The position numbers and the translations under genes are program-made. A model generated the notes under the pieces. The model was not told the origin of the DNA, searched no databases, and saw only the letters and a list, made by a program, of their open reading frames with translations. A stretch of DNA of 64,000 nucleotides, taken from Leuconostoc mesenteroides subsp. mesenteroides (GTDB taxonomy: Bacteria > Bacillota > Bacilli > Lactobacillales > Lactobacillaceae). The DNA lies in NCBI GenBank assembly GCA_009676745.1, contig CP046062.1:1535501-1599500 (forward strand), written 5' to 3'. The first letter of the stretch is position 1. Each line of letters begins with the position of its first letter. Positions 16,282-26,999 of the stretch are shown piece after piece.

Positions 16282-17163
16282 TTATTGCCATGATTGCAAT
16301 AATTCATTAATTGTTAATTGGCCCGGAGCGCTTTGCTGTGTACCATCAAGTACTGCAAATGTCATTTCTGATCCATATTGATATCCCTCGATGCGGCTTC
16401 GTTTACCTATATCACCCATACTCATCGTAATTAGTGGTTGCGAAATATTGACATCCCCAGTTATTTTCAATAGGTAATCAACATCTTTTTCAGATTCAGG
16501 CATGACAGCCAGCTTGATAATATCCGCTGAAGTATCAGCCATATCGGTAATCAAAGCTGATAAATTTTTAGGAGTAGATTCAAAATCATGGTATGACAAT
16601 AATACGGGAACATTAGCTTTATGGGCCGCATCCATAATGCTTTGTCGTAGCGGCTCATCTAATGTATATTCAACATCAACAGCTGCAAACGGAAATCCCG
16701 AGTGTAATGCAGTAATAATAAAAGTGGCATACTCAGTGGGACTCATTTCACCATGACCACCCTGTGCAACCGTACGGTACGTTAACAGTACCGGAAAACC
16801 ACCAATACTATTAAACACCGTACCAGTTAATTCTTTAATAATTTGAACATTTATTTGTGGCCAATTTGTCATGAATTCTTGCTTGGCATTATCGATTTCT
16901 GATAACATTTTCGCTTCTGTCATAGCAGAAACGTTTTTTTGTGCCAATTCACTTTGTGCCCCAGCCTTGACTTGTTGCCACATAACCGCTTGACTAAAGT
17001 CATCAGCTATGTAATCTGCACGCCACTCGACAATGTCTGGATTTTGTTGTTGTAGTTTTTGTGCGAACGGACTAATTTTATCTGTGGGCCCTAAAGTTAA
17101 GGGGACTGCTATGATTGGCTTATCTGTGCTGCTGGGTATGTTTAATAGTTCTCTTAATGTCAT
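16282..17163 (-). CDS. aroD: 3-dehydroquinate dehydratase, type I, with an internal insertion
   Basis: A 293-residue enzyme from the ATG at 17163, whose ATGA overlaps the upstream stop; a TTG seven codons earlier is possible. It converts 3-dehydroquinate to 3-dehydroshikimate through a Schiff base. Landmarks: EWRAD 46-50, TYRT 128-131, YHDF 191-194 (catalytic His192), Lys217 in IIKLAVMP (Schiff-base Lys) and MGDIGKRSR 249-257. Type I enzymes are usually near 250 residues. Here about 45 extra residues lie between EWRAD and TYRT. All catalytic residues are kept. Last gene of the aro operon. Confidence 0.9.
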   Translation of the reverse strand: MTLRELLNIPSSTDKPIIAVPLTLGPTDKISPFAQKLQQQNPDIVEWRADYIADDFSQAVMWQQVKAGAQSELAQKNVSAMTEAKMLSEIDNAKQEFMTNWPQINVQIIKELTGTVFNSIGGFPVLLTYRTVAQGGHGEMSPTEYATFIITALHSGFPFAAVDVEYTLDEPLRQSIMDAAHKANVPVLLSYHDFESTPKNLSALITDMADTSADIIKLAVMPESEKDVDYLLKITGDVNISQPLITMSMGDIGKRSRIEGYQYGSEMTFAVLDGTQQSAPGQLTINELLQSWQ

Positions 17164-17714
17164 AGGACTCTGTAGACGATCCAAACCATTTGAGGCTTTA
17201 GCTGTTGCCTAATTTGATATTTTTCGTCTCTACTTTCAGGTAATTTTTTGAATTGATCTTCAGAAACAATTGTAAACCGATTTTGCTCTTTTATAAAGTC
17301 CTTTAGTGCAACAATTTTACTTGGTGAAAAAATCACTGAAGGTCCCCAAGCATTATCTAAATTCACAGATGTTAAATATCTTTTCATTAAGCCTTCTGTT
17401 GCTGCATGGACTACTGCTATATTTCGCTCAAATTTAGTATTTTCAATCACACTCATCGTCATTAAAGGCAGCGAAAATGTTTTTTCAATTGCTAGTTGTG
17501 CCCAATTTAAATAATTAAAGTCGGCCCAATTCAAATCTGGTTCCTGATTAGACTTAAATGCAACTGGTAAAATTATTTTATCTCCTTTATAGTCACCTAA
17601 ATGTAATAAAACTTCTTCAAAACTATTGTGTAAAACTAAGGTTTCGTCTGTTAAATAATATCGTGCTGCCTGTTCAGAATCTGTACCATTTGGTCCTAAT
17701 GTGTGAAGTTTCAT
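17160..17714 (-). CDS. Prephenate dehydratase-like protein without ACT domain (BacA/PheA superfamily)
   Basis: A 184-residue protein starting with TLGPNGTDSEQAA, the signature start of the prephenate dehydratase fold. Full PheA is about 275-280 residues with a TRF active-site motif and a C-terminal Phe-binding ACT domain. Here the ACT domain is absent and no clear TRF is found; ENRFTIVSE near residue 144 is the closest. The small size and TLGPxGTxSE start recall BacA-type prephenate decarboxylases of Bacillus. Its place next to the chorismate mutase fusion argues for a prephenate substrate. Whether it makes phenylpyruvate or another product cannot be told from the sequence. AGGTGA lies just before the ATG. 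Confidence 0.65.
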   Translation of the reverse strand: MKLHTLGPNGTDSEQAARYYLTDETLVLHNSFEEVLLHLGDYKGDKIILPVAFKSNQEPDLNWADFNYLNWAQLAIEKTFSLPLMTMSVIENTKFERNIAVVHAATEGLMKRYLTSVNLDNAWGPSVIFSPSKIVALKDFIKEQNRFTIVSEDQFKKLPESRDEKYQIRQQLKPQMVWIVYRVL

Positions 17715-17717
17715 AAA

Positions 17718-18518
17718 TCACCTATTTAATTGCCTATTTTCTTTGTCAATGGCAGCCTGCATCAAAATGGTCATGATACCATCGATCATCTCATCTGTTA
17801 TATCTACAGAAGCACTAAAATCTGACTTCAATTCTTTACGTAACTTTAACATACGATCCTGTTGAATCGTCGGTATATCAAATTTTTCTTTATAACGAGC
17901 TACCGCTTCAACAATCTGCAAACGCTCCGAAATAATTTTAAAAATTTGACGATCAAATGCATCTATTTGTGAGCGCATTTGTAGTAGTGCTAGTTCATCT
18001 TCATTGGCACTAAATAAAGCAATGATTTCAGCTGCAATACGCGCCGGTGTTTTACCAACTGTTTCTACGGTAAAATTGGCAACCTCTTCATACTTTGGAT
18101 CACGTTCCTGCCACAATGCAAAGAATTCCGCTGTTGATTTTTCTTGAAGTAATGGACGCTGCCCTTCAAGAATTAAGCGCCCAATCGTACTTTCTAAGTT
18201 ACCATGTAAATAGATAATTGTTGCAGGAGAATGACGCAGAATTTCTAAGTTTTCTGGTCGTTCTACTACACCACCACCCGTGGCAACAATACCATCAAAT
18301 GTTTGCACATCATTCAAAACCTCGGTTTCTAACTCACGGAAGCCAACTTCGCCACGCTCTTCAAAAATTTCTGCGATTGATTTACCAGCAGCACGTTCGA
18401 TTTCAGAATCAATATCTACAAACTTTGAATGATGTTGCCGAGCAATCTCTTTACCTACTGTTGTTTTCCCAGCGCCCATAAACCCAATAAGCATTAATGT
18501 ATCTGGTTCTTTAATCAT
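17718..18518 (-). CDS. aroK: Shikimate kinase-chorismate mutase fusion
   Basis: A 266-residue two-domain protein. Residues 1-170 are shikimate kinase: Walker A GFMGAGKT 12-19, Asp35/Asp37 in DIDSEIE, Arg61, GGG 81-83, RPLL 121-124 and the ERD lid region. Residues about 176-262 are an AroQ-type chorismate mutase: MRSQIDAFDRQI with the conserved Arg182, then ERLQIVEAVARYK with Lys210, and a C-terminal helix. It phosphorylates shikimate and separately turns chorismate into prephenate. Kinases alone are about 170 residues, so the extra domain is a true fusion with a short linker. It lies between tyrA and the prephenate protein, both of which use its second product. Confidence 0.9.
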   Translation of the reverse strand: MIKEPDTLMLIGFMGAGKTTVGKEIARQHHSKFVDIDSEIERAAGKSIAEIFEERGEVGFRELETEVLNDVQTFDGIVATGGGVVERPENLEILRHSPATIIYLHGNLESTIGRLILEGQRPLLQEKSTAEFFALWQERDPKYEEVANFTVETVGKTPARIAAEIIALFSANEDELALLQMRSQIDAFDRQIFKIISERLQIVEAVARYKEKFDIPTIQQDRMLKLRKELKSDFSASVDITDEMIDGIMTILMQAAIDKENRQLNR

Positions 18519-18525
18519 AATCTTC

Positions 18526-19377
18526 TCACTTTAACAATAAATTTTTTCTTGATTCTTGTGCTGACGAAATTAAAGCCATCAAAGTTGATGCATCATTATC
18601 TTCAATTGCTTGAGAAAATAATTTTAATTGCTCGATCATTAAAGATTGACTAGTTAATATTGCTTCTTTATTACTTAGCAATACATCAGTCCATAACTTT
18701 GGATCACTTTCTGCTATACGTGTCATATCTTTGAAGCCACCAGCCACATACTGTCCAAATGTCGTTGAATCGCCTAGCTGATAAGTGGCAGTATTCATTA
18801 ATGCAAAAGACGTAATATGTGGTATGTCACTGACTACAGCCATCAACTCATCGTGGTCCTCGACTGAAATAGGCATAAATTTAGCTGCAATAGGCTTAAG
18901 AATTACCTGTAACTTGTAAGCATTAGAAATTGAACTTGGAATCAAAAAGTACGTTACATCTTGATACAGTTTTTCATTCGCCCATTCAACTCCGCTTCGA
19001 TGTGTACCAGCCATAGCATGACCACCAACAAACTGAATATTTTTGGGTGTCAGAACTGTTTCCGCCACATCCATAATATCTCGTTTTGTCGATCCTGTAT
19101 CTGTAACTATCACCTCTTTTTTTAGTGATAGTTTAGATAATAAATGAATTAATTCTTCAATATAAGTTACTGGTGTCGCTAAAATAATAACATCAGCATG
19201 AGATGCAACATTTACTAATTTAGAATTTACATCAAAAACAATATCATGATCTTTTGCATAGCTGAGTGATTCTTCATTAATATCAACACCAATTACTTGA
19301 TTTTGTGGCTCTTTGCTTAAAATTTTGGCTAAAGATGCCCCCATTTCACCAAGACCCACAATAACGATATTTTTCAT
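18526..19377 (-). CDS. tyrA: Prephenate dehydrogenase
   Basis: A 283-residue NAD-dependent enzyme that oxidises and decarboxylates prephenate to 4-hydroxyphenylpyruvate on the way to Tyr. The Rossmann motif GLGEMGAS is at the N-terminus. Also present are TDTGSTK, the His of VGGHAMAGTHRSG and the helical C-terminal dimer domain (ITSFALM, GGFKDMTRIA). The start at 19377 is chosen because the ATGA overlaps the aroA stop and AGGGG lies 6 bases before; an ATG two codons earlier is too close to that site. No C-terminal ACT domain, so no direct Tyr feedback domain. Confidence 0.92.
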   Translation of the reverse strand: MKNIVIVGLGEMGASLAKILSKEPQNQVIGVDINEESLSYAKDHDIVFDVNSKLVNVASHADVIILATPVTYIEELIHLLSKLSLKKEVIVTDTGSTKRDIMDVAETVLTPKNIQFVGGHAMAGTHRSGVEWANEKLYQDVTYFLIPSSISNAYKLQVILKPIAAKFMPISVEDHDELMAVVSDIPHITSFALMNTATYQLGDSTTFGQYVAGGFKDMTRIAESDPKLWTDVLLSNKEAILTSQSLMIEQLKLFSQAIEDNDASTLMALISSAQESRKNLLLK

Positions 19378-20678
19378 AACCATCCCCTCTTAATTGAGGA
19401 CACATCTTCTATAAATCCAGGATACGAAACACTCATAGCTTCTTCACCGGTTAATACTACATCGCCTTCAGTAATGAGAGAAGCAATTACGTTCATCATA
19501 CCAATACGATGATCCCCATGTGAATCAAGTAACGTTGAACCATTTGATGCGTGTAGGGGCGTCCCACCATGAATGACCATGCCATCTGGTTTCTCATCAA
19601 TATCAGCACCCAATTTAGTTAACTCTCTAATAACTGTTGAAATTCTGTCCGTTTCCTTTACACGTAATTCCTCTGCACCACTTATAACTGTGTCTCCTAC
19701 AGCCTGTGTAGCAGCTAGAGCAAGAATAGGCAGTTCATCAACTGCACCAGGAATATCTTCAGCCGTAATTTCAATGCCGTGTAAAGTTTGTGCTTTGACC
19801 GTAATATCAGCCAACGGTTCTCCGTCAGATGTAATCGGCTGCTTAGAAATTTTTGCTCCCATTCGTTCGAGTAATTTGATCACACCGTCACGCGTTGGAT
19901 TGACACCAACTTTTTTAATAGTAATTTCCGAATTCGGTGTAATTAAACCAGCCACCATGAAAAAAGCAGCACTTGAGATATCTGATGGTACTAAAACATG
20001 CTGACCACTTAGTTTTGGCTGTTTTTTAACAGTAATTACACCATTATCTGTTTTAATTTGCCCACCAAACTGACGTAGCATACGCTCTGTATGATCTCTT
20101 GACGGTAGATCTTCGATAATCGTTGTCTCACCCTCAGCTTGTATGCCAGCCAATAAAATAGCACTTTTGACTTGCGCTGATGCTACCGGCATATGATAAG
20201 TAATACCACTTAGCTCAGTATTAGCCTTAATAACAGCTGGTAAAAATTCGTCATTAGATAATTCAAATTGAGCATTCATCATTGACAACGGATCCGTAAC
20301 ACGACGCAATGGCCGTTTACTTAGTGACGCATCACCAAAAATATGCAAATCAAACGGTTGCTTACTTAGCAATCCCATGAGCAGGCGAGTTGAAGTTCCT
20401 GAGTTGCCCATATCCAATCCAACAGATGGTGCCTTAAAATTTGTAAGACCTTTACCAATAACTGTCACTTGTGATTCGGTGTGGTTGATTTCCACACCAA
20501 GTGCACGAAAAACACCCATAGTATGCATCACATCGTCCGACATCAAGAAATTGTCAATGACTGTTTTCCCTTCAGCTATCGCACCGAACATCAATGCCCG
20601 ATGTGATATTGACTTGTCACCAGGAACCGTGATTTCTCCATGAAGGCCATTTTTTTCCGCTTTGGTCAATTTAATCAT
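19374..20678 (-). CDS. aroA: 5-enolpyruvylshikimate-3-phosphate synthase
   Basis: A 434-residue enzyme joining phosphoenolpyruvate to shikimate-3-phosphate. Family landmarks are complete: GDKSISHRA near the N-terminus, NSGTSTRLLMG, SKRPLRRV, SAQVKSA, LPSRDHTERML, VDELPILA, ELRVKETDR and DHRIGM. Normal length. AAAGGATG lies 7 bases before the ATG. The 46-base gap to aroC is the largest between genes in this part of the operon. Confidence 0.96.
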   Translation of the reverse strand: MIKLTKAEKNGLHGEITVPGDKSISHRALMFGAIAEGKTVIDNFLMSDDVMHTMGVFRALGVEINHTESQVTVIGKGLTNFKAPSVGLDMGNSGTSTRLLMGLLSKQPFDLHIFGDASLSKRPLRRVTDPLSMMNAQFELSNDEFLPAVIKANTELSGITYHMPVASAQVKSAILLAGIQAEGETTIIEDLPSRDHTERMLRQFGGQIKTDNGVITVKKQPKLSGQHVLVPSDISSAAFFMVAGLITPNSEITIKKVGVNPTRDGVIKLLERMGAKISKQPITSDGEPLADITVKAQTLHGIEITAEDIPGAVDELPILALAATQAVGDTVISGAEELRVKETDRISTVIRELTKLGADIDEKPDGMVIHGGTPLHASNGSTLLDSHGDHRIGMMNVIASLITEGDVVLTGEEAMSVSYPGFIEDVSSIKRGWL

Positions 20679-20724
20679 TTCTTTTCATCCTTTGTTCATA
20701 ATATGTACTATAGCCGAAGCTATA

Positions 20725-21903
20725 TTAAAAATTCCTTATTTCTTCACGATACACTGCCACTTGTTCTTTCATACGTTCAATGTTATCTGCATCAAATTTA
20801 TCCAAAACAGCTTTGGCTAGTTCAATTGCTACCATTGCTTCAGCAATTACAGCAGCTGCAGTGACCGCAGTAGTATCTGAGCGTTCTATAGAGGCCCGAT
20901 GGTCTTCGTGTGTATCGATGTCAACTGACTGCATCGGACGATACAAAGTAGGAATAGGCTTAACCACGCCACGAACAACAATTGCTTCTCCTGTCGTCAT
21001 ACCACCTTCAAAACCACCGAGATTATCAGAGCCACGATAAAAACCACGTTTTTCGTCCCAAAAAATTTCGTCCATAACTTGATCGCCATACTTTTCTGCG
21101 TTATCAAAACCACCACCAAATTGAACACCTTTGAAGGCATTGATACCAACAATAGCGTTGGCAATTTTAGCATCTAACTTCGTATCGGCTGATACATATG
21201 AACCCAATCCAACTGGCATCCCCGTTGCAATAACTTGAACTTGACCGCCTACAGTATTTGCATCACGTTTTGTTTTATCAATTACTTCTTTAATAGCTTC
21301 ATCAGCTTCTGCGTTTAAAGCACGTGTATCGAAACCTTCTGTCACAACGCGCAACTCTTGCAGGTTCTTATACTTAGTTAATTCATTCAGATCAGACTTA
21401 GCGGGCCCAACATTCACAACAAAGCCATGAACGTCAACGCCTATTTCGGCCAATAATTTTTTGGCAACAGCACCGACTGCGACACGCATTGTTGTTTCAC
21501 GAGCCGAAGATCTTTCCAAAACATTACGTAAATCTTCACGGTGACGGTACTTCATTCCACCAACCAAATCAGCATGTCCTGGACGCGGGCGTAATACCTT
21601 ACGGAGAGTATTTTCTGCTGTCGCTGGCGCGTTAGGGGCCATAATTTTTGACCAATTATTATGATCATCATTATGAACATTCAAAGTAATTGGTGATCCA
21701 AGGGTTGTTTGATGACGAATACCTGTCAGAAAGGTAACGGTATCAGTTTCGATTTTTTGACGTTCGCCACGACCATAACCGCGCTGACGTCGAGCTAATT
21801 GCTCATTGACATCCTCTTGACTAATCTGCAATCCCGCAGGAATACCTTCAATAACAGCAATTTCTTCAGGACCATGGCTTTCACCAGCAGTAACATATCT
21901 CAT
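20725..21903 (-). CDS. aroC: Chorismate synthase
   Basis: A 392-residue FMN-dependent enzyme that makes chorismate from EPSP. The start is the ATG at 21903 (MRYVTAGESHGPE), with GGAG 7 bases upstream; the longer in-frame form would lie inside aroB. Landmarks: GESHG, RRQRGYGRGERQKIETD, RPGHADL, ERSSARETTMRVAVGA, GGGFDNAEKYG, GGFEGGMTTGE and the C-terminal DTTAVTAAAVIAEAM. The full set of FMN and substrate residues appears present. It overlaps the aroB stop region by position and is likely coupled. Confidence 0.96.
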   Translation of the reverse strand: MRYVTAGESHGPEEIAVIEGIPAGLQISQEDVNEQLARRQRGYGRGERQKIETDTVTFLTGIRHQTTLGSPITLNVHNDDHNNWSKIMAPNAPATAENTLRKVLRPRPGHADLVGGMKYRHREDLRNVLERSSARETTMRVAVGAVAKKLLAEIGVDVHGFVVNVGPAKSDLNELTKYKNLQELRVVTEGFDTRALNAEADEAIKEVIDKTKRDANTVGGQVQVIATGMPVGLGSYVSADTKLDAKIANAIVGINAFKGVQFGGGFDNAEKYGDQVMDEIFWDEKRGFYRGSDNLGGFEGGMTTGEAIVVRGVVKPIPTLYRPMQSVDIDTHEDHRASIERSDTTAVTAAAVIAEAMVAIELAKAVLDKFDADNIERMKEQVAVYREEIRNF

Positions 21904-21904
21904 A

Positions 21905-22969
21905 TCAATTCTCCACAAATGCCGGCATGTCGGCAATTTTCTTCTTTACAATAATTGGCTGACCCACTTTTTCAAGAGCCACTAAATTCAAAACACCATC
22001 ATGATTCTTTTTGTCATTAATCAAATGATTAAAAAATTCAGTTGTTCCGATAAACTGCGAATGCGTTGGTAAACCGACGGCCTCTAAACGACTCAATAAT
22101 TCAGTGGTTAACCCGCTAGGCATTATACCCTGTTTCTCAAATCGGCTGCTAATGGCAATCATGCCAATCGCAACGGCTTCACCATGGCGTAGTTCACCAT
22201 GGGCCAAAAGCTCAATAGCGTGACCAAAAGTATGACCAAAATTCAAAAACTGGCGGTCTCCTGCTTCTTTTTCATCAGCCATCACTACACTAGCTTTATA
22301 AGCAATTGCACGTTTTGATAATTCTTGTGCGTGATGACGTATATCTGCTACCGAGTTAATCTGACCGGTAAAATCAAAAAAGTCTTGATTAGCCAATGCT
22401 GATGTTTTAACGACTTCCGCATATCCTTCCACTAAATCGCGGTCAGTCAGCGTATTCAAATATGTAACATCGACTAAGTCTAAATCTGGCTGATAAAAAG
22501 AACCAGCAATATTTTTTGTATTACCAAGGTTCACGGCTGTCTTACCACCAACCGACGAGTCAACTTGAGCTGTTAATGACGTTGCAATTTGAATAAAAGC
22601 AATGCCACGCATGTACAAAGAAGCGACTACGCCACCTAAATCACCAATTACGCCACCACCTAAGGCGATAACACCGTCACCACGAGTAAATCCAGCAGCT
22701 GCCATTTTAGCAATTAATTCACCAGCCACTGACAAAGATTTTGACGACTCTCCAGCAGGAACCTCTAACTCGAGTATATCAAACCCTGCTTCACTTAATT
22801 GATTTGCCGTATCCTTTAAATATAATGGCCCAACATTGCTATCTGTTAGTAATGCAATCTTTCGCGCAGACCACACAGCCGATATTTCTTCGCCAAGACG
22901 TGTGTGTAAAGTGTTATCAATTTTCACATCATATTTTTTTGTCGCTAAATCAACTGTAATTGTACTCAT
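21905..22969 (-). CDS. aroB: 3-dehydroquinate synthase
   Basis: A 354-residue NAD- and metal-dependent enzyme that cyclises DAHP to 3-dehydroquinate. Landmarks: LALGGGVIGDLGG-type loop (here ALGGGVIGDLGGVVAS), TSLTAQVDSSVGGKTAVN, the metal Glu of VEGYAEVVKTS and the His residues of NFGHTFGHAIE and HGEAVAIGM. Length is normal. Its ATGA start overlaps the aroG stop, a coupled junction. Confidence 0.96.
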   Translation of the reverse strand: MSTITVDLATKKYDVKIDNTLHTRLGEEISAVWSARKIALLTDSNVGPLYLKDTANQLSEAGFDILELEVPAGESSKSLSVAGELIAKMAAAGFTRGDGVIALGGGVIGDLGGVVASLYMRGIAFIQIATSLTAQVDSSVGGKTAVNLGNTKNIAGSFYQPDLDLVDVTYLNTLTDRDLVEGYAEVVKTSALANQDFFDFTGQINSVADIRHHAQELSKRAIAYKASVVMADEKEAGDRQFLNFGHTFGHAIELLAHGELRHGEAVAIGMIAISSRFEKQGIMPSGLTTELLSRLEAVGLPTHSQFIGTTEFFNHLINDKKNHDGVLNLVALEKVGQPIIVKKKIADMPAFVEN

Positions 22970-23958
22970 TTAATGGCCTCGCGCACCTTGTTTGCTTTCT
23001 GTGTTAATTGCTTGAATTGTGCCGGTGTTAATGCTTGAGCACCATCAACAAAGGCATGTGATGGATCATCATGTATTTCAGTCATCAAACCTTGAGCACC
23101 AGCTGCAATTGCAGCTAAGGCAAGTGGTTCAACAAACTTTGAAACACCAGCTGCATGTGAAGCATCTGCAATGACAGGATAGTGAGTTAACGATTGTAAA
23201 ACAGGGATAGCTGATACATCAAGCGTATTACGCGTGTATTTATTATCATACGTACGAATACCACGTTCCATCAAAATGATTTGGTCATTCCCGCCAGCAG
23301 CAATGTATTCAGCAGCATTGAGCAAATCATCAATAGTTGCTGACATACCACGTTTCAAAACTACTGGTTTGTTTTTCTTACCCAGCGCTTTAAGCAAAGC
23401 AAAGTTTTGCATATTACGCGTACCAACTTGGAAAATATCTGTGTAAGAATCTACTAAATCAACGTCTCGTGTATCTAAGATTTCAGTCACCATGTCCATC
23501 TCTAATGCATCTGCGGCTGCACGATGAGCTTTTAAGCCTTCTTCGCCATTACCTTGGAATGAATATGGGGATGTGCGTGGTTTGAAAGCCCCACCACGCA
23601 GGATAGTTGCCCCTGCCTGCTTAACATCTTCACCCATTTCTTTAACATGTTCTGGGGATTCAATTGAATCAGGGCCGGCCATGAAAACGAAATGACCGCC
23701 ACCAATGATGCTGTGTTTAGTTTTAATAATTGTATCCTCTGGGTGGAAGTCACGTGATGACTTGATGGCAGAGTGATGACTTGTGATTATCTCAACATTA
23801 TTTTGTGAAATATTATTCAATACCTCTTCAGGTAAACTTTTCACACCTGCTAAAGCAACTCTATTGCCATGAACAAATACTGGTTTAATAGGGTCTTTGG
23901 TATCCAATTGCGCTGCAATTTTTTCTGCTTCTTGACTTGTTTTTGCGATAATAATCAT
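22966..23958 (-). CDS. aroG: DAHP synthase (type I-beta) with a changed metal-site residue
   Basis: A 330-residue enzyme that condenses phosphoenolpyruvate and erythrose-4-phosphate, the first step of the pathway. The start at 23958 has GAGGA 8 bases upstream. An N-terminal ferredoxin-like regulatory domain of about 70-85 residues precedes the barrel, as in Thermotoga-type enzymes; this domain usually binds Phe/Tyr for feedback control. KPRTSPYSFQG is at 126-136. The highly conserved GPCS motif, whose Cys binds the metal, reads GPDS here (Asp97; codon GAT read directly). The other metal ligands appear kept (SHAAG, MTEIHDD). It may be active with Asp as ligand. Confidence 0.92.
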   Translation of the reverse strand: MIIIAKTSQEAEKIAAQLDTKDPIKPVFVHGNRVALAGVKSLPEEVLNNISQNNVEIITSHHSAIKSSRDFHPEDTIIKTKHSIIGGGHFVFMAGPDSIESPEHVKEMGEDVKQAGATILRGGAFKPRTSPYSFQGNGEEGLKAHRAAADALEMDMVTEILDTRDVDLVDSYTDIFQVGTRNMQNFALLKALGKKNKPVVLKRGMSATIDDLLNAAEYIAAGGNDQIILMERGIRTYDNKYTRNTLDVSAIPVLQSLTHYPVIADASHAAGVSKFVEPLALAAIAAGAQGLMTEIHDDPSHAFVDGAQALTPAQFKQLTQKANKVREAIK

Positions 23959-23962
23959 TGTT

Positions 23963-24787
23963 TTATTCCTCAATTGTTTTCTTCATAAGTTTTCTGTCCG
24001 CCGGCTTGTCGAACCAATACTCAAAGCTCAGCGCTCCCTGATTGACTAACATCGGCAAACCATTTAATGTTACTAATCCACGTTGGTTAGCAGATTTCAA
24101 TAATGTAGTTTGTTGATTACGGTAAATCATGTCTACCACTAAAGTGTGCTGCGGTAGTAATGCTATTTGTAAATCCGTTAATAGCGTCCGCAGATCATTC
24201 ATCCCCACGGTGGTGGCATTGATAAGCATGTCGGCACGCTTTAACGCTTTAGTGAGCACCTGATTATCTGCTAAATCCTCTAAATGCCCATTTCCTTCGC
24301 TAAGATAACTAATTTCTGTTTTTCGCTCATGCCAATCTTCATGAACTCTATTAAATACAATTAATTCTCTCACGCCATATAGTTTTGCAGTGGCAATCAC
24401 CGACCTAGCTGCTCCACCAGTTCCTAAGACAATTACCGTTTCTTTGGATTGATTGGAACTAATACTTTGCCAAAAACCATCCCCGTCTGTGTTAGTACCA
24501 ACTAGACGTCCCTTGATATTTTTAACTGTATTTACCGCATGAAGGCGCTGAGCAATTGGCGATAATTCATCTAAATATTGAATAATTTCATTTTTAAACG
24601 GTGTCGAAACATTGAATCCGCCTACGTGAAGAGCTTTTAGCCCGATAATAGCCTCTTCAAGTTTTTCTGGTGAAATGTCGAACGCGTGATAGTGTGCATC
24701 GATACCATACTCCATAATCATCTTATTTTGCATTTGTGGCGAACGTGAGTGTCCGGCCGGATGCGCGATTAACCCATATAAAGTCAT
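23963..24787 (-). CDS. aroE: Shikimate dehydrogenase
   Basis: A 274-residue NADP-dependent reductase of 3-dehydroshikimate. Landmarks: HSRSPQMQN shikimate-binding start, NVSTPFKNE with the catalytic Lys, NTD in GTNTDGDG, the nucleotide motif LGTGGAARSV and a C-terminal NQGALSFEYW. The ATGA start overlaps the transketolase stop. Normal length for the family. Confidence 0.94.
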   Translation of the reverse strand: MTLYGLIAHPAGHSRSPQMQNKMIMEYGIDAHYHAFDISPEKLEEAIIGLKALHVGGFNVSTPFKNEIIQYLDELSPIAQRLHAVNTVKNIKGRLVGTNTDGDGFWQSISSNQSKETVIVLGTGGAARSVIATAKLYGVRELIVFNRVHEDWHERKTEISYLSEGNGHLEDLADNQVLTKALKRADMLINATTVGMNDLRTLLTDLQIALLPQHTLVVDMIYRNQQTTLLKSANQRGLVTLNGLPMLVNQGALSFEYWFDKPADRKLMKKTIEE

Positions 24788-26706
24788 GATAGCTCCTGTG
24801 TGATTTTATCGGCGATATCCTCAGGATTAAATCCGAATTCATCAAGAGCTATTTGTGCTGCCGCACTCATACCAAATTCATCAATACCAAATACTATGCC
24901 ATCATTGCCAGCAATTCCTTGCCAACCTAATGTTGTTCCTGCCTCTATTATGACATTTTTTGTCCCCATTTCGGGGATAATTTGTTGCTTTTTATCATTA
25001 TCTAATGCTAAGAATCGAGATAGATTTGGCATAGAAACAACGTTTGAGGGTTGTGATAGTAATTCACTCACCTTCTGTGCTATTTGAACTTCGGATCCTG
25101 TAGCAATCAAGTTAATTTTAGCCTCGTCATGATGACTTATTTGTGCTGCGCCATTTTCAAGTGATTGTTTCGCTTGATCTTTATTGCCTTGAATGCCGAT
25201 TTCTCCACGACTTAAAATTAAGATTGTTGGTCGATCAGTTGACATCAAAGCTTGCTGCCAAGCACCGGCTATCTCTTCAGCTGTGCCTGGACGTAATACA
25301 TCCACACCAGGAATCAGGCGAAGCCCCATCAATTGTTCAACCGGCTGATGTGTCGGTCCATCCTCACCAACAGTAATACTATCATGAGTAAAAACATAAA
25401 TACTTGGTACATGTTGTAAGGCACTCAAACGGATAGCTGCTTTCATGTAATCCGAAAAAGCTAAGAATGTAGCACCGAATACTTTGGTACCACCATGTAA
25501 AGCAATACCGTTCATTACCGCACCCATACCAAACTCACGCACGCCAAACGCAATATTTCTGCCCAATCGATTATCAGCATTGAACAATGATGAATCGACT
25601 ACTTCAGCATTAGTCGATGCTACTAAATCAGCTGATCCACCCCATAACTGTGGCAATTGTGCCGCAAAATGTTGTAACACATATTTAGAAATTTTCCGCC
25701 CTGCTTGTATTTTTAAATCCGCAGGGAGCTCAGGTATCGTTAACGAATTTTTAGTTGAAAACGCTATGTAGTCCGTTAATTCGTCATTCAAAGGACGTTT
25801 TTGATGCAAAAGTCTATTCGAAATTTTAGCACGCATGTCTTCAAGTAAGTTACTTGGTAATTCAAAGTTCTGTATATGAACGTCTAGTGCTGATGCAAGA
25901 TCTTGCAATTGTTGACTATCTAACGGTGTACCGTGGGCCTTGTTAGTACCAGCGAATGGTCCAAAATCCCCAATAATCGTTTTCACGGCAATCAGTGTGG
26001 GCTCAGGAGACATTTTAGCATTTTCAATTGCATCATGAATAGCTTCTAAATCATTACCATCGTTGACCTCCCGTATATCCCACCCATAACTAGCAAAACG
26101 CGCTAGATTATTTGATATATCTGATCTTGGCTTCAAACCATCAAGACTGACGTCATTATCATCATATAGAACAACCAACTTACCGAGCTTTTGTTGACCA
26201 GCGAGCGATGCTACTTCATGACTCACCCCCTCCATTAGATCTCCATCACCAACTAACGCAAATGTAAAATGATTAATTACTGAGGGGAATTGGCTATTGA
26301 GTTTCGCTTCAGCCATTGCCATACCGACCGCCATACCTAATCCTTGACCAAGTGGTCCAGTCGTTGCTTCAACACCCGGTGTCAAGCCAACCTCTGGATG
26401 TCCAGGCGTTTTTGAGTGTGGTTGTCGAAATTCTGACAAGTCTTGGGCTGATAAGTCAAATCCAGCGGCATGTAAGGTTGCATAGAGTAATGCAGCACCA
26501 TGACCTGCAGACAGAACGAAACGATCACGATTAATCATATTAGGATTTTCTGGATCAATATTAAGTTGATTTGCATACAACTCATATAAAATCGGCGCAG
26601 CACCTAAGGCGATACCCGGATGTCCGGAACCAGCCTTGCTAATCATTTGGTTAGACAGTAACCTCAACGACTGAATTGTTTTTGTTGACAAAGATGATAT
26701 TTCCAT
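24784..26706 (-). CDS. tkt: Transketolase, first gene of the aro operon
   Basis: A 640-residue thiamine-diphosphate enzyme. The start is the ATG at 26706 with AAGGAG 6 bases upstream; the longer in-frame version would run back into the terminator hairpin. Landmarks: GSGHPGIALGAAP, TPGHPE, TGPLGQGLG, GDGDLMEG with YDDNDVSLDG, FGVREFGMGAVMNG and THDSITVGEDGPTHQPVEQ. In a phosphoketolase fermenter its use here is most likely to make erythrose-4-phosphate for AroG. Its place at the head of the aro operon, directly behind the aromatic-amino-acid attenuator, supports that. Confidence 0.95.
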   Translation of the reverse strand: MEISSLSTKTIQSLRLLSNQMISKAGSGHPGIALGAAPILYELYANQLNIDPENPNMINRDRFVLSAGHGAALLYATLHAAGFDLSAQDLSEFRQPHSKTPGHPEVGLTPGVEATTGPLGQGLGMAVGMAMAEAKLNSQFPSVINHFTFALVGDGDLMEGVSHEVASLAGQQKLGKLVVLYDDNDVSLDGLKPRSDISNNLARFASYGWDIREVNDGNDLEAIHDAIENAKMSPEPTLIAVKTIIGDFGPFAGTNKAHGTPLDSQQLQDLASALDVHIQNFELPSNLLEDMRAKISNRLLHQKRPLNDELTDYIAFSTKNSLTIPELPADLKIQAGRKISKYVLQHFAAQLPQLWGGSADLVASTNAEVVDSSLFNADNRLGRNIAFGVREFGMGAVMNGIALHGGTKVFGATFLAFSDYMKAAIRLSALQHVPSIYVFTHDSITVGEDGPTHQPVEQLMGLRLIPGVDVLRPGTAEEIAGAWQQALMSTDRPTILILSRGEIGIQGNKDQAKQSLENGAAQISHHDEAKINLIATGSEVQIAQKVSELLSQPSNVVSMPNLSRFLALDNDKKQQIIPEMGTKNVIIEAGTTLGWQGIAGNDGIVFGIDEFGMSAAAQIALDEFGFNPEDIADKITQELS

Positions 26707-26718
26707 GAGATTCTCCTT

Positions 26719-26760
26719 AAATAAAAATCGTACTAAGTGAGTAAACACCTAGTACGATTT
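26719..26760 (-). terminator. Second (promoter-distal) terminator of the aro leader, segments F and G
   Basis: On the minus strand AAATCGTACTAGGTG (26746-26760) pairs with CACTTAGTACGATTT (26725-26739), 15 pairs with one G-U and loop TTTACT. TTTTTATTT then runs straight into the tkt ribosome binding site (26713-26718). Segment F can pair instead with the 3' arm of the first terminator. Confidence 0.88.
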
Positions 26761-26779
26761 AACAGAAAATTCCACTTCT

Positions 26780-26823
26780 GAAAAATAAAAGTCACTAAGT
26801 GTTTACTATTAACACTTAGTGAC
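26780..26823 (-). terminator. First terminator of the aro leader, segments D and E
   Basis: On the minus strand GTCACTAAGTGTT (26811-26823) pairs perfectly with AACACTTAGTGAC (26791-26803), loop AATAGTA, then TTTTATTTTT. Its 5' arm can pair instead with segment C and its 3' arm with segment F. Confidence 0.92.
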
Positions 26824-26887
26824 TCAACCTTGAAAAGCTTCTGGTCGCTAAGTGCGTCGTAACCGACGCACTTGCAATGCGACGGTT

Positions 26888-26941
26888 CTACATAAACCAG
26901 AAGTAGTAATAACTATTATTTTTCAAGACTTTGTTGTTCAT
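26888..26941 (-). CDS. Aro operon leader peptide MNNKVLKNNSYYYFWFM
   Basis: A 17-codon frame, ATG at 26941 and TAG at 26888-26890, about 23 bases after the predicted transcription start. GAG lies 7 bases and AGGA 12 bases before the ATG. Codons 11-16 are Tyr-Tyr-Tyr-Phe-Trp-Phe, all three aromatic amino acids made by the downstream genes. This is the pattern of a leader peptide that senses charged tRNA by ribosome stalling. The first base after the stop begins RNA segment A, the switch segment. The peptide itself is unlikely to have a function. Confidence 0.88.
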   Translation of the reverse strand: MNNKVLKNNSYYYFWFM

Positions 26942-26970
26942 AATTTTTCTCATTCCTATTGATGTAATTA

Positions 26971-26999
26971 ACTATACATTTATTTATTATAAATGTCAA
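26971..26999 (-). promoter_or_regulatory. Promoter of the aro operon leader
   Basis: On the minus strand TTGACA (26994-26999), 17-base spacer, TATAGT (26971-26976), near consensus. Start predicted near 26964. Confidence 0.85.

What the first reader, a model, noticed from the sequence alone, without database searches (positions are those of the whole stretch)
26719..26999. Relay-type ribosome-mediated attenuator with tandem terminators controlling the aro operon
Seen: a consensus promoter, a 17-codon leader peptide with YYYFWF just before its stop, and seven RNA segments in which each pairs with either neighbour (A:B, C:D, E:F or B:C, D:E, F:G). Both final pairings D:E and F:G are strong terminators. 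Known: classical attenuators (trp, his, phe of enterics) use a leader peptide and 3-4 or more segments, while Firmicutes mostly use T-boxes for these genes. Inferred: a ribosome at the stop codon covers A, so B:C forms and both terminators form. A ribosome stalled on Tyr, Phe or Trp codons leaves A free and, domino-like, opens both terminators. A single peptide sensing all three aromatic amino acids and passing the signal through two terminators is elegant and may be undescribed in this group.
Basis: partly seen in the sequence, partly recalled or inferred. Interest (0 to 1): 0.95.

Follow-up and report, generated by a model that had tools for sequence, protein, structure and literature searches.

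The report
Two-terminator aromatic leader-peptide relay switch
In front of the aromatic amino acid genes of Leuconostoc and many related lactic acid bacteria lies a short RNA leader with a mini-gene ending in a run of Tyr, Phe and Trp codons, and its RNA segments are predicted to relay the position of a stalled ribosome through two transcription-stop hairpins in a row, which would turn the genes on only when these amino acids run short.

Summary
On the minus strand a near-consensus promoter is followed by a 17-codon ORF (MNNKVLKNNSYYYFWFM*), seven chain-pairing segments (A:B, C:D, E:F against B:C, D:E, F:G) and two intrinsic terminators, D:E and F:G, before tkt and the shikimate genes. The leader is in 18 of 19 genus genomes; in the 19th the contig starts inside tkt. 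The same architecture with different stems occurs in nine genus-level groups of the family and in Loigolactobacillus. A:B and E:F coevolve between genera; support for C:D is weaker. Full-length equilibrium folding always gives both terminators, so any switch must be kinetic. A coarse kinetic model of 42 leaders gives read-through above 0.5 in 33 with the ribosome on the first aromatic codon and in none with it at the stop codon. No Rfam family and none of the papers seen describes this. It is a new variant of ribosome-mediated attenuation. Nothing was tested in a cell; leader translation, starvation response and termination are inferred.

The parts
26971..26999 (-). promoter-like site TTGACA-17-TATAGT
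   Evidence: 11 of 12 matches
26888..26941 (-). leader peptide ORF MNNKVLKNNSYYYFWFM*; Tyr codons 26911-26903, Phe 26902-26900, Trp 26899-26897, Phe 26896-26894, stop 26890-26888
   Evidence: the ending Y[YF]YFWF[MIT] is in all 19 distinct leaders of alignment A1
26920..26927 (-). L1, CTTGAAAA in the leader codons, pairs with Ct1
   Evidence: supported on the Leuconostoc side, not within lactobacilli
26896..26903 (-). L2, CTTCTGGT (Tyr-Phe-Trp codons), pairs with Ct2
26878..26887 (-). segment A, AACCGTCGCA, directly after the stop codon; pairs with B
26861..26873 (-). segment B, AAGTGCGTCGGTT; pairs with A or C
26844..26859 (-). segment C, CGACGCACTTAGCGAC; 26859-26850 pairs with B, 26854-26844 with D
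26838..26845 (-). Ct2, ACCAGAAG, tail of C that pairs with L2
26829..26836 (-). Ct1, TTTTCAAG, pairs with L1
26811..26825 (-). segment D, 5' arm of terminator 1; pairs with C or E
26789..26803 (-). segment E, 3' arm of terminator 1; pairs with D or F
26781..26790 (-). U tract of terminator 1
26763..26780 (-). small hairpin between the terminators, inside the E:F loop
   Evidence: weak
26742..26760 (-). segment F, 5' arm and part of the loop of terminator 2; 26754-26742 pairs with E
26725..26739 (-). segment G, 3' arm of terminator 2
24784..26706 (-). tkt (transketolase), first gene of the controlled operon
16282..24787 (-). aroE, DAHP synthase, aroB, aroC, aroA, tyrA, shikimate kinase-chorismate mutase, ORF 17160-17714 without a hit, dehydroquinase

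Best explanation
The minus-strand leader 26999-26706 has a 17-codon ORF ending Tyr-Tyr-Tyr-Phe-Trp-Phe-Met and holds seven RNA segments whose alternate pairings would, depending on where the ribosome stands, form or block two predicted transcription terminators in front of tkt and the shikimate genes. A ribosome stalled on a Tyr codon or Phe14 (and on Trp15 if its footprint is short) for lack of charged tRNA would leave A free, so A:B forms first, then C:D, then E:F, and both terminators are lost (inferred). A ribosome that reaches the stop codon would cover A, so B:C, D:E and F:G form and transcription stops (inferred). If no ribosome is on the leader, the aromatic codons themselves would pair with the tail of C (L2:Ct2, in Leuconostoc also L1:Ct1), which keeps C from D and gives termination (inferred). 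Shown: the sequence elements, their conservation, compensatory changes, coevolution of pairings between genera, and the place before shikimate genes. The same design, with other stem sequences, is found in nine genus-level groups of the family and in Loigolactobacillus.
For: Found through tkt, not through the peptide: all 18 distinct loci with an intact 5' flank at 60% identity or more carry the leader. Alignment A1 (19 leaders): terminator pairs 98.2% of cells paired, 27 cells changed on both sides against 6.1 in shuffles; antiterminator pairs 94.6%, 9 against 3.3. Same architecture with different stems in other genera. Coevolution, 42 leaders in 10 groups: A:B -17.1 matched against -9.6 mismatched kcal/mol, 0 of 20000 permutations as good; C:D -14.7 against -10.8, 12; E:F -15.6 against -10.0, 0; L2:Ct2 4; L1:Ct1 0. 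Within lactobacilli (6 groups, 720 permutations): A:B 1, E:F 2; controls C:F 700, B:E 686, E:C 543, A:D 79. In one g14 leader (L222) E:F is a 16-pair helix that reaches into both terminator loops. When the RNA ends at D, A:B and C:D together exceed 0.5 in 22 of 42 leaders (ribosome on first aromatic codon), 26 (codon before Trp), 22 (Trp), 0 with no ribosome, 0 at the stop. Path barriers from A:B to B:C are 11.1-15.9 kcal/mol in 19 leaders. Kinetic model, 42 leaders: read-through above 0.5 in 33 (first aromatic codon), 33 (Trp), 0 (stop), 2 (no ribosome), and 33 without ribosome if the lock helix is left out.
Against: Full-length equilibrium folding of 19 leaders gives both terminators for every ribosome position tried. 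At the D point most Leuconostoc leaders still favour B:C at equilibrium (g1 mean C:D 0.23, ribosome on the first aromatic codon; of 19 leaders C:D exceeds 0.5 in 4, 9, 9, 6, 6 for Tyr1, Tyr2, Tyr3, Phe14, Trp15, footprint 12). With the ribosome at the stop the tail of C can still pair with D beside B:C (0.49 in the window; above 0.5 in 10 of 19; mean 0.46 of 42) until E is made. C:D has no pair changed on both sides in A1; within lactobacilli its 58 of 720 is hardly better than the control A:D (79), and on the Leuconostoc side it is 6 of 24, where controls C:F and A:D reach 2. In one search sliding the partners by +1 gives as many double changes (9 cells) as the true register, though only 32.8% of cells pair, and the number of pairs with double changes is reached by 18 of 500 shuffles, further pair types by 79. 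L1:Ct1 is not supported within lactobacilli (74 of 720); L2:Ct2 is no better than mismatches on the Leuconostoc side, where it hardly varies (24 of 24). In one search two of five measures of the lock are not above shuffles (112 and 300 of 500). Without a ribosome L2:Ct2 is near 0 at equilibrium in g47, 0.07 in g39, 0.09 in g18. Barriers for losing C:D to D:E are lower, 8.5-11.5. The kinetic model holds only helices that I named; at a tenfold rate constant 33 falls to 23 of 42. After terminator 1 is passed, terminator 2 is still above 0.5 in 9 of 42. L239 (g37) has no terminator 1 that my script found. Of 80 tkt loci from named genomes only 5 show such a leader. No RNA, ribosome or reporter data.
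Confidence: 0.8

Rival explanations
1. Only terminator 1 is controlled by the ribosome. Terminator 2 is a plain second barrier or a leftover of hairpin duplication, and E:F is a by-product of arms that resemble each other.
For: B, D and F arms and C, E and G arms look alike in the window. In the kinetic model terminator 2 stays above 0.5 in 9 of 42 leaders after terminator 1 is passed, with means 0.37 in g1, 0.62 in g18 and 0.54 in g39.
Against: E:F coevolves between genera whose stems differ (0 of 20000; 2 of 720 within lactobacilli) while C:F, B:E and E:C do not within lactobacilli. E:F uses loop bases of terminator 2 that F:G does not pair (L119, L222, L230). Terminator 2 changed its stem in L. 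fallax and kept complementarity to E.
Confidence: 0.1
2. The conserved peptide acts by nascent-chain arrest, in the manner of TnaC (recalled), with free aromatic amino acid as ligand, instead of slow decoding of starved codons.
For: The ending [YF][YF]Y[YF]WF recurs across genera, although the search pattern itself asked for aromatic codons.
Against: The peptide varies between Tyr and Phe at three positions and in its residues after Trp-Phe, while the RNA partner Ct2 follows the codon changes. A ribosome held at the stop codon would give termination in this chain.
Confidence: 0.06
3. The leader is a T-box, a riboswitch or a protein-bound attenuator, and the ORF is incidental.
For: T-boxes are common in the genus: 16 to 29 matches per genome in 19 genomes, and one precedes the trp operon in the window.
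Against: No Rfam family reaches its threshold in the window or on the leaders of 14 relatives; the one hit there is a T-box elsewhere in L200. Up to E 10 the leader region matches only unrelated families, no T-box or amino acid leader. The aromatic run, its distance to A and the codon-following partner Ct2 are kept.
Confidence: 0.02

Closest known systems
his operon attenuator of enteric bacteria (recalled, not read)
   Same: leader peptide with a run of cognate codons; several segments in a chain, so that a stalled ribosome shifts every pairing by one
   Different: one terminator and one amino acid there; here two terminators in one chain, aromatic codons of three kinds, and a separate leader-codon:C-tail pairing
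uORFC-13-1 motif before aroF of Acholeplasma (PMC8632094, section 26 and passages seen)
   Same: predicted leader ORF with at least one Phe codon and a terminator before DAHP synthase
   Different: other lineage, one terminator described, Phe only; no relay or Tyr/Trp run in the section read
rimP-leader with a second terminator in tandem (PMC2965389, passages seen)
   Same: two terminators in tandem, the upstream one with a potential antiterminator
   Different: no leader peptide or amino acid sensing in the passages seen; Gammaproteobacteria
Histidine leader-peptide attenuators of Firmicutes (PMC9413887 and PMC2965389, passages seen)
   Same: classical leader-peptide attenuation in Firmicutes in place of T-boxes
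   Different: His codons; in PMC9413887 the Leuconostoc his operon is listed under T-boxes; no aromatic leader in the passages seen
Putative attenuator listed before an aro/tyrA gene cluster of Lactobacillus plantarum (PMC1173090, passages of Table 7 seen)
   Same: predicted attenuator before aromatic genes of a lactobacillus
   Different: a table entry; no leader peptide, segments or mechanism in the passages seen

Membership tests
ribosome-mediated (leader peptide) transcription attenuator | short ORF between promoter and first gene with a run of codons for the amino acids made by the operon | tested here: met
ribosome-mediated (leader peptide) transcription attenuator | mutually exclusive antiterminator and intrinsic terminator structures, conserved | tested here: met
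   C:D weakest
ribosome-mediated (leader peptide) transcription attenuator | ribosome position selects the structure (computed) | tested here: inconclusive
   full-length equilibrium: no; at the D point 22 to 26 of 42; kinetic model 33 of 42 against 0 of 42, 23 of 42 at a faster rate constant
ribosome-mediated (leader peptide) transcription attenuator | leader is translated, transcripts end in vivo and read through on starvation | not testable with these tools
   no RNA or reporter data on hand
his-type multi-segment relay (definition recalled) | three successive alternative pairings that shift register together | tested here: met
   A:B, C:D, E:F against B:C, D:E, F:G; C:D moderately supported
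his-type multi-segment relay (definition recalled) | a single terminator at the end | tested here: not met
   two terminator-like sites, 26825-26789 and 26760-26725
T-box (RF00230) | match to the covariance model | tested here: not met
   no match on the leader; the trp operon T-box 33667-33401 scores 69.5 bits, below the gathering score of 93
amino acid leader families of Rfam | match to any Rfam leader family | tested here: not met

The most novel reading that the evidence does not exclude
A Lactobacillaceae-wide class of leader RNA in which one mini-peptide reads the aromatic amino acids together and one seven-segment chain controls two terminators in series, with a built-in lock: the sensing codons themselves pair with the relay, so the RNA has three states (no ribosome: off; stalled ribosome: on; finished ribosome: off), and the two terminators in series multiply the fold control.
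Probability: 0.58. Interest if true: 0.8.

Novelty: new variant of a known kind. Interest (0 to 1): 0.72.

Why it matters
In Firmicutes amino acid operons are commonly seen as T-box territory (general knowledge). Leuconostoc has many T-boxes (16 to 29 matches per genome in 19 genus genomes), yet it and relatives appear to run the common aromatic pathway by classical attenuation with one peptide for several aromatic amino acids, which one T-box reading one tRNA would not do. The serial terminators and the lock are design ideas that can be tested with reporters, and the compensated segments are a ready comparative data set for models of co-transcriptional folding.

Tried and rejected
Equilibrium folding of the whole leader under ribosome masks does not show the switch, so I moved to D-point ensembles, barriers and a kinetic model. 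A first attempt at helix energies gave zero for every helix because of a wrongly used constraint and was replaced. One search stopped with an index error and was replaced. T-box, Rfam leader and riboswitch readings were rejected. In the genus, pattern matches with one mismatch (L129-L140) look by eye like parts of other genes or rRNA; not checked further. Of the weak model hits that I read (L163-L170) six are such leaders and two (L168, L170) are not; weaker ones were not read. In the order-wide search 20 loci were fetched (L201-L220); two of them show a short frame under my filter (L202, L213) and neither is followed by this architecture by eye; the other matches there were not examined. In the family search not every match was examined, so 45 of 397 genomes is a lower bound. 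Literature: ten searches. Three listed only part of the papers found (20 of 60, 15 of 44, 10 of 114). None of the titles and abstracts listed, and none of the passages read in four papers, describes this leader; subscription papers and preprints are not held.

Full report
What is there. The minus strand carries TTGACA-17-TATAGT (26999-26971), an ORF at 26941-26888 with the product MNNKVLKNNSYYYFWFM*, and then seven segments. A (26887-26878) follows the stop codon directly. B (26873-26861) can pair with A or C; C (26859-26844) with B or D; D (26825-26811) with C or E; E (26803-26789) with D or F; F (26760-26742) with E or G (26739-26725). D:E and F:G are the only two terminator-like sites found between 26500 and 27200. 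The tkt start codon is at 26706. Pfam identifies tkt and shikimate pathway genes behind it; ORF 17160-17714 has no hit at E 1e-10.

Conservation in the genus. Searching with the tkt protein brought 18 distinct loci, the window's own included, with at least 60% identity and an intact 5' flank; all 18 have the leader. A pattern search found an exact match in 18 of 19 genus genomes; in the 19th (G013) the contig begins inside tkt (L018). One genome (G009) has no tkt match and its leader stands directly before aroE. The peptide ends Y[YF]YFWF[MIT] in all 19 distinct leaders of alignment A1, which holds 17 genus leaders, L. fallax and the leader L033.

Both sets of pairings. On A1 the set B:C+D:E+F:G forms standard pairs in 98.2% of cells, with 27 cells changed on both sides (shuffles 6.1; no shuffle reaches any of the five measures). 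The set A:B+C:D+E:F has 94.6% and 9 cells (shuffles 3.3, 0 of 500), but the number of pairs with double changes (5) is reached by 18 of 500 and the further pair types by 79 of 500, and partners slid by +1 also give 9 such cells. Slid registers pair in 25 to 44% of cells. C:D has no pair changed on both sides in A1. The leader-codon set L1:Ct1+L2:Ct2 has 93.6% and 8 cells (shuffles 3.5, 2 of 500), but two measures are not above shuffles.

A wider family. A covariance model from 17 of the 19 leaders over 397 family genomes gave strong hits in the genus and in G267, G025, G086 and G024. Of eight weaker hits read, six are the same design with other stems. A codon pattern for the aromatic run found more. 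By my reading at least 45 of 397 family genomes, in 10 genus-level groups, carry the leader peptide at such a place: g1 18, g8 1, g18 1, g7 2, g55 4, g14 3, g39 1, g47 8, g3 6, g37 1. Among them one is decayed (L225), one is cut by a contig edge (L221) and one has no clear terminator 1 (L239, g37), so the full architecture was seen in nine groups, and in Loigolactobacillus jiayinensis (L044), whose genus may or may not be one of the unnamed groups. Of the 80 tkt loci fetched from named genomes only 5 show such a leader: three Leuconostoc (L. pseudomesenteroides, L. holzapfelii, L. fallax), the Lactobacillaceae MAG L033 and Loigolactobacillus; most of the rest are tkt genes at 44 to 49% identity whose operons I did not study. 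In the one example per group tested, the first gene is tkt, aroE, DAHP synthase or chorismate synthase. Peptide endings include NSYYYYWFT*, NRFYYYWFIK* and NSYYYYWFMK*.

Coevolution. For 42 leaders in 10 groups I compared the duplex energy of each segment with its own partner and with partners from other groups. A:B, B:C, D:E, E:F, F:G and L1:Ct1: 0 of 20000 permutations as good; C:D 12; L2:Ct2 4. Within lactobacilli (6 groups, 720 permutations): A:B, B:C, D:E and F:G 1, E:F 2, L2:Ct2 36, C:D 58, L1:Ct1 74; controls A:D 79, E:C 543, B:E 686, C:F 700. Within the Leuconostoc side (4 groups, 24 permutations): A:B, B:C, D:E, E:F, F:G and L1:Ct1 1, C:D 6, L2:Ct2 24; controls C:F 2, A:D 2, B:E 5, E:C 11. 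So A:B and E:F are well supported. C:D is supported over all groups, but inside each half it is about as good as, or worse than, the best control.

How it would work. Full-length equilibrium gives both terminators for every ribosome position tried in 19 leaders. When the RNA ends at D, C:D in the window leader is 0.93 with the ribosome on Tyr1 and 1.0 on Phe14 and Trp15 (footprint 12), 0 with no ribosome; at the stop B:C is 1.0 and A:B 0, while the tail of C still pairs with D at 0.49. Across 42 leaders A:B and C:D together exceed 0.5 in 22 (first aromatic codon), 26 (codon before Trp) and 22 (Trp), 0 without ribosome and 0 at the stop, where C:D alone averages 0.46 beside B:C. Most Leuconostoc leaders stay below 0.5, which speaks against an equilibrium switch. 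Path barriers in 19 leaders are 11.1 to 15.9 kcal/mol from A:B to B:C, and 8.5 to 11.5 for giving up C:D for D:E. A coarse kinetic model (named helices only, 40 nt/s, rate constant 1e6 per s, footprint 12) gives for 42 leaders: at the stop codon terminator 1 above 0.5 in all; on the first aromatic codon terminator 1 below 0.5 in 40, terminator 2 below 0.5 in 33, read-through of both above 0.5 in 33; on Trp 42, 35 and 33; with no ribosome read-through above 0.5 in 2, but in 33 if the lock helix is left out. With 1e7 the 33 on the first aromatic codon become 23. The window: 0.96 on Tyr2, 0.00 at the stop, 0.00 without ribosome; at 1e7 0.79 on Tyr2. The model contains what I put into it, so it shows that the mechanism is consistent, not that it occurs.

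The lock. L2 (Tyr/Phe-Trp codons) pairs with a segment just behind C, and the partner follows codon changes: TTCTGG with CCAGAA, TACTGG with CCAGTA, TATTGG with CCAATA. A ribosome on the aromatic codons or at the stop would hide L2. Without a ribosome A:B would form and the chain would read through; L2:Ct2 would prevent it by closing C off from D. I infer that this is why it is kept. In g47, g39 and g18 equilibrium folding shows little of L2:Ct2 (in g18 L1:Ct1 is at 1.0).

Amino acids sensed. With a 12-nt footprint, Tyr codons, Phe14 and Trp15 can give C:D in some leaders; with 15 nt, Trp15 gives it in 0 of 19; the last Phe codon gives it in 0 of 19 at 12 nt, and in 2 of 19 at 15 nt but without A:B. 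In g55 leaders (NSYYYYWFT*) the only Phe codon of the run is the last one, so Phe sensing there is doubtful.

Prior knowledge. No Rfam match in the window at gathering score; on the leader region only unrelated families up to E 10; on 14 relatives one T-box elsewhere in L200. Ten paper searches, three with capped lists, showed no description (see Tried and rejected). Nearest are the uORFC-13-1 motif of Acholeplasma (PMC8632094, section 26 read), Firmicute His leaders (PMC9413887 and PMC2965389, passages), the tandem rimP-leader (PMC2965389, passages) and a table entry for L. plantarum (PMC1173090, passages). The his relay of enterics and TnaC are recalled.

Verdict. Real, widespread and well supported by comparison; a new variant of a known kind; untested in cells.

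Noticed in passing
window 33667-33401, minus strand: A T-box before the trp operon (trpB, trpD, trpC, trpF, trpA, trpE, trpG) scores 69.5 bits, below Rfam's gathering score, so the default scan missed it. The trp genes lie directly upstream of the aromatic leader.
   Followed up: partly
window 26780-26763, minus strand, and relatives: A small hairpin between the two terminators: 38 of 42 leaders fold some hairpin there, but group mean z-scores run only from 0.0 to -2.3. It lies inside the E:F loop and may bring E and F together.
   Followed up: partly
L225: A leader with the peptide and two terminator-like hairpins, but segments A to C missing, and behind it only a dehydroquinate synthase fragment in the stretch fetched: probably a decayed operon.
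   Followed up: partly
L239: Leader before chorismate synthase with a recognisable peptide, B:C and terminator 2, but no clear terminator 1.
   Followed up: no
window 17160-17714, minus strand: A 184-aa ORF inside the aromatic operon has no Pfam hit at E 1e-10 and no NCBIfam hit at 1e-8.
   Followed up: no
L125: A genus member without a tkt match has the leader directly before aroE.
   Followed up: yes
window 26953, minus strand: In-frame upstream ATG (MRKI...) in the window and several genus leaders; which start is used is unknown.
   Followed up: no
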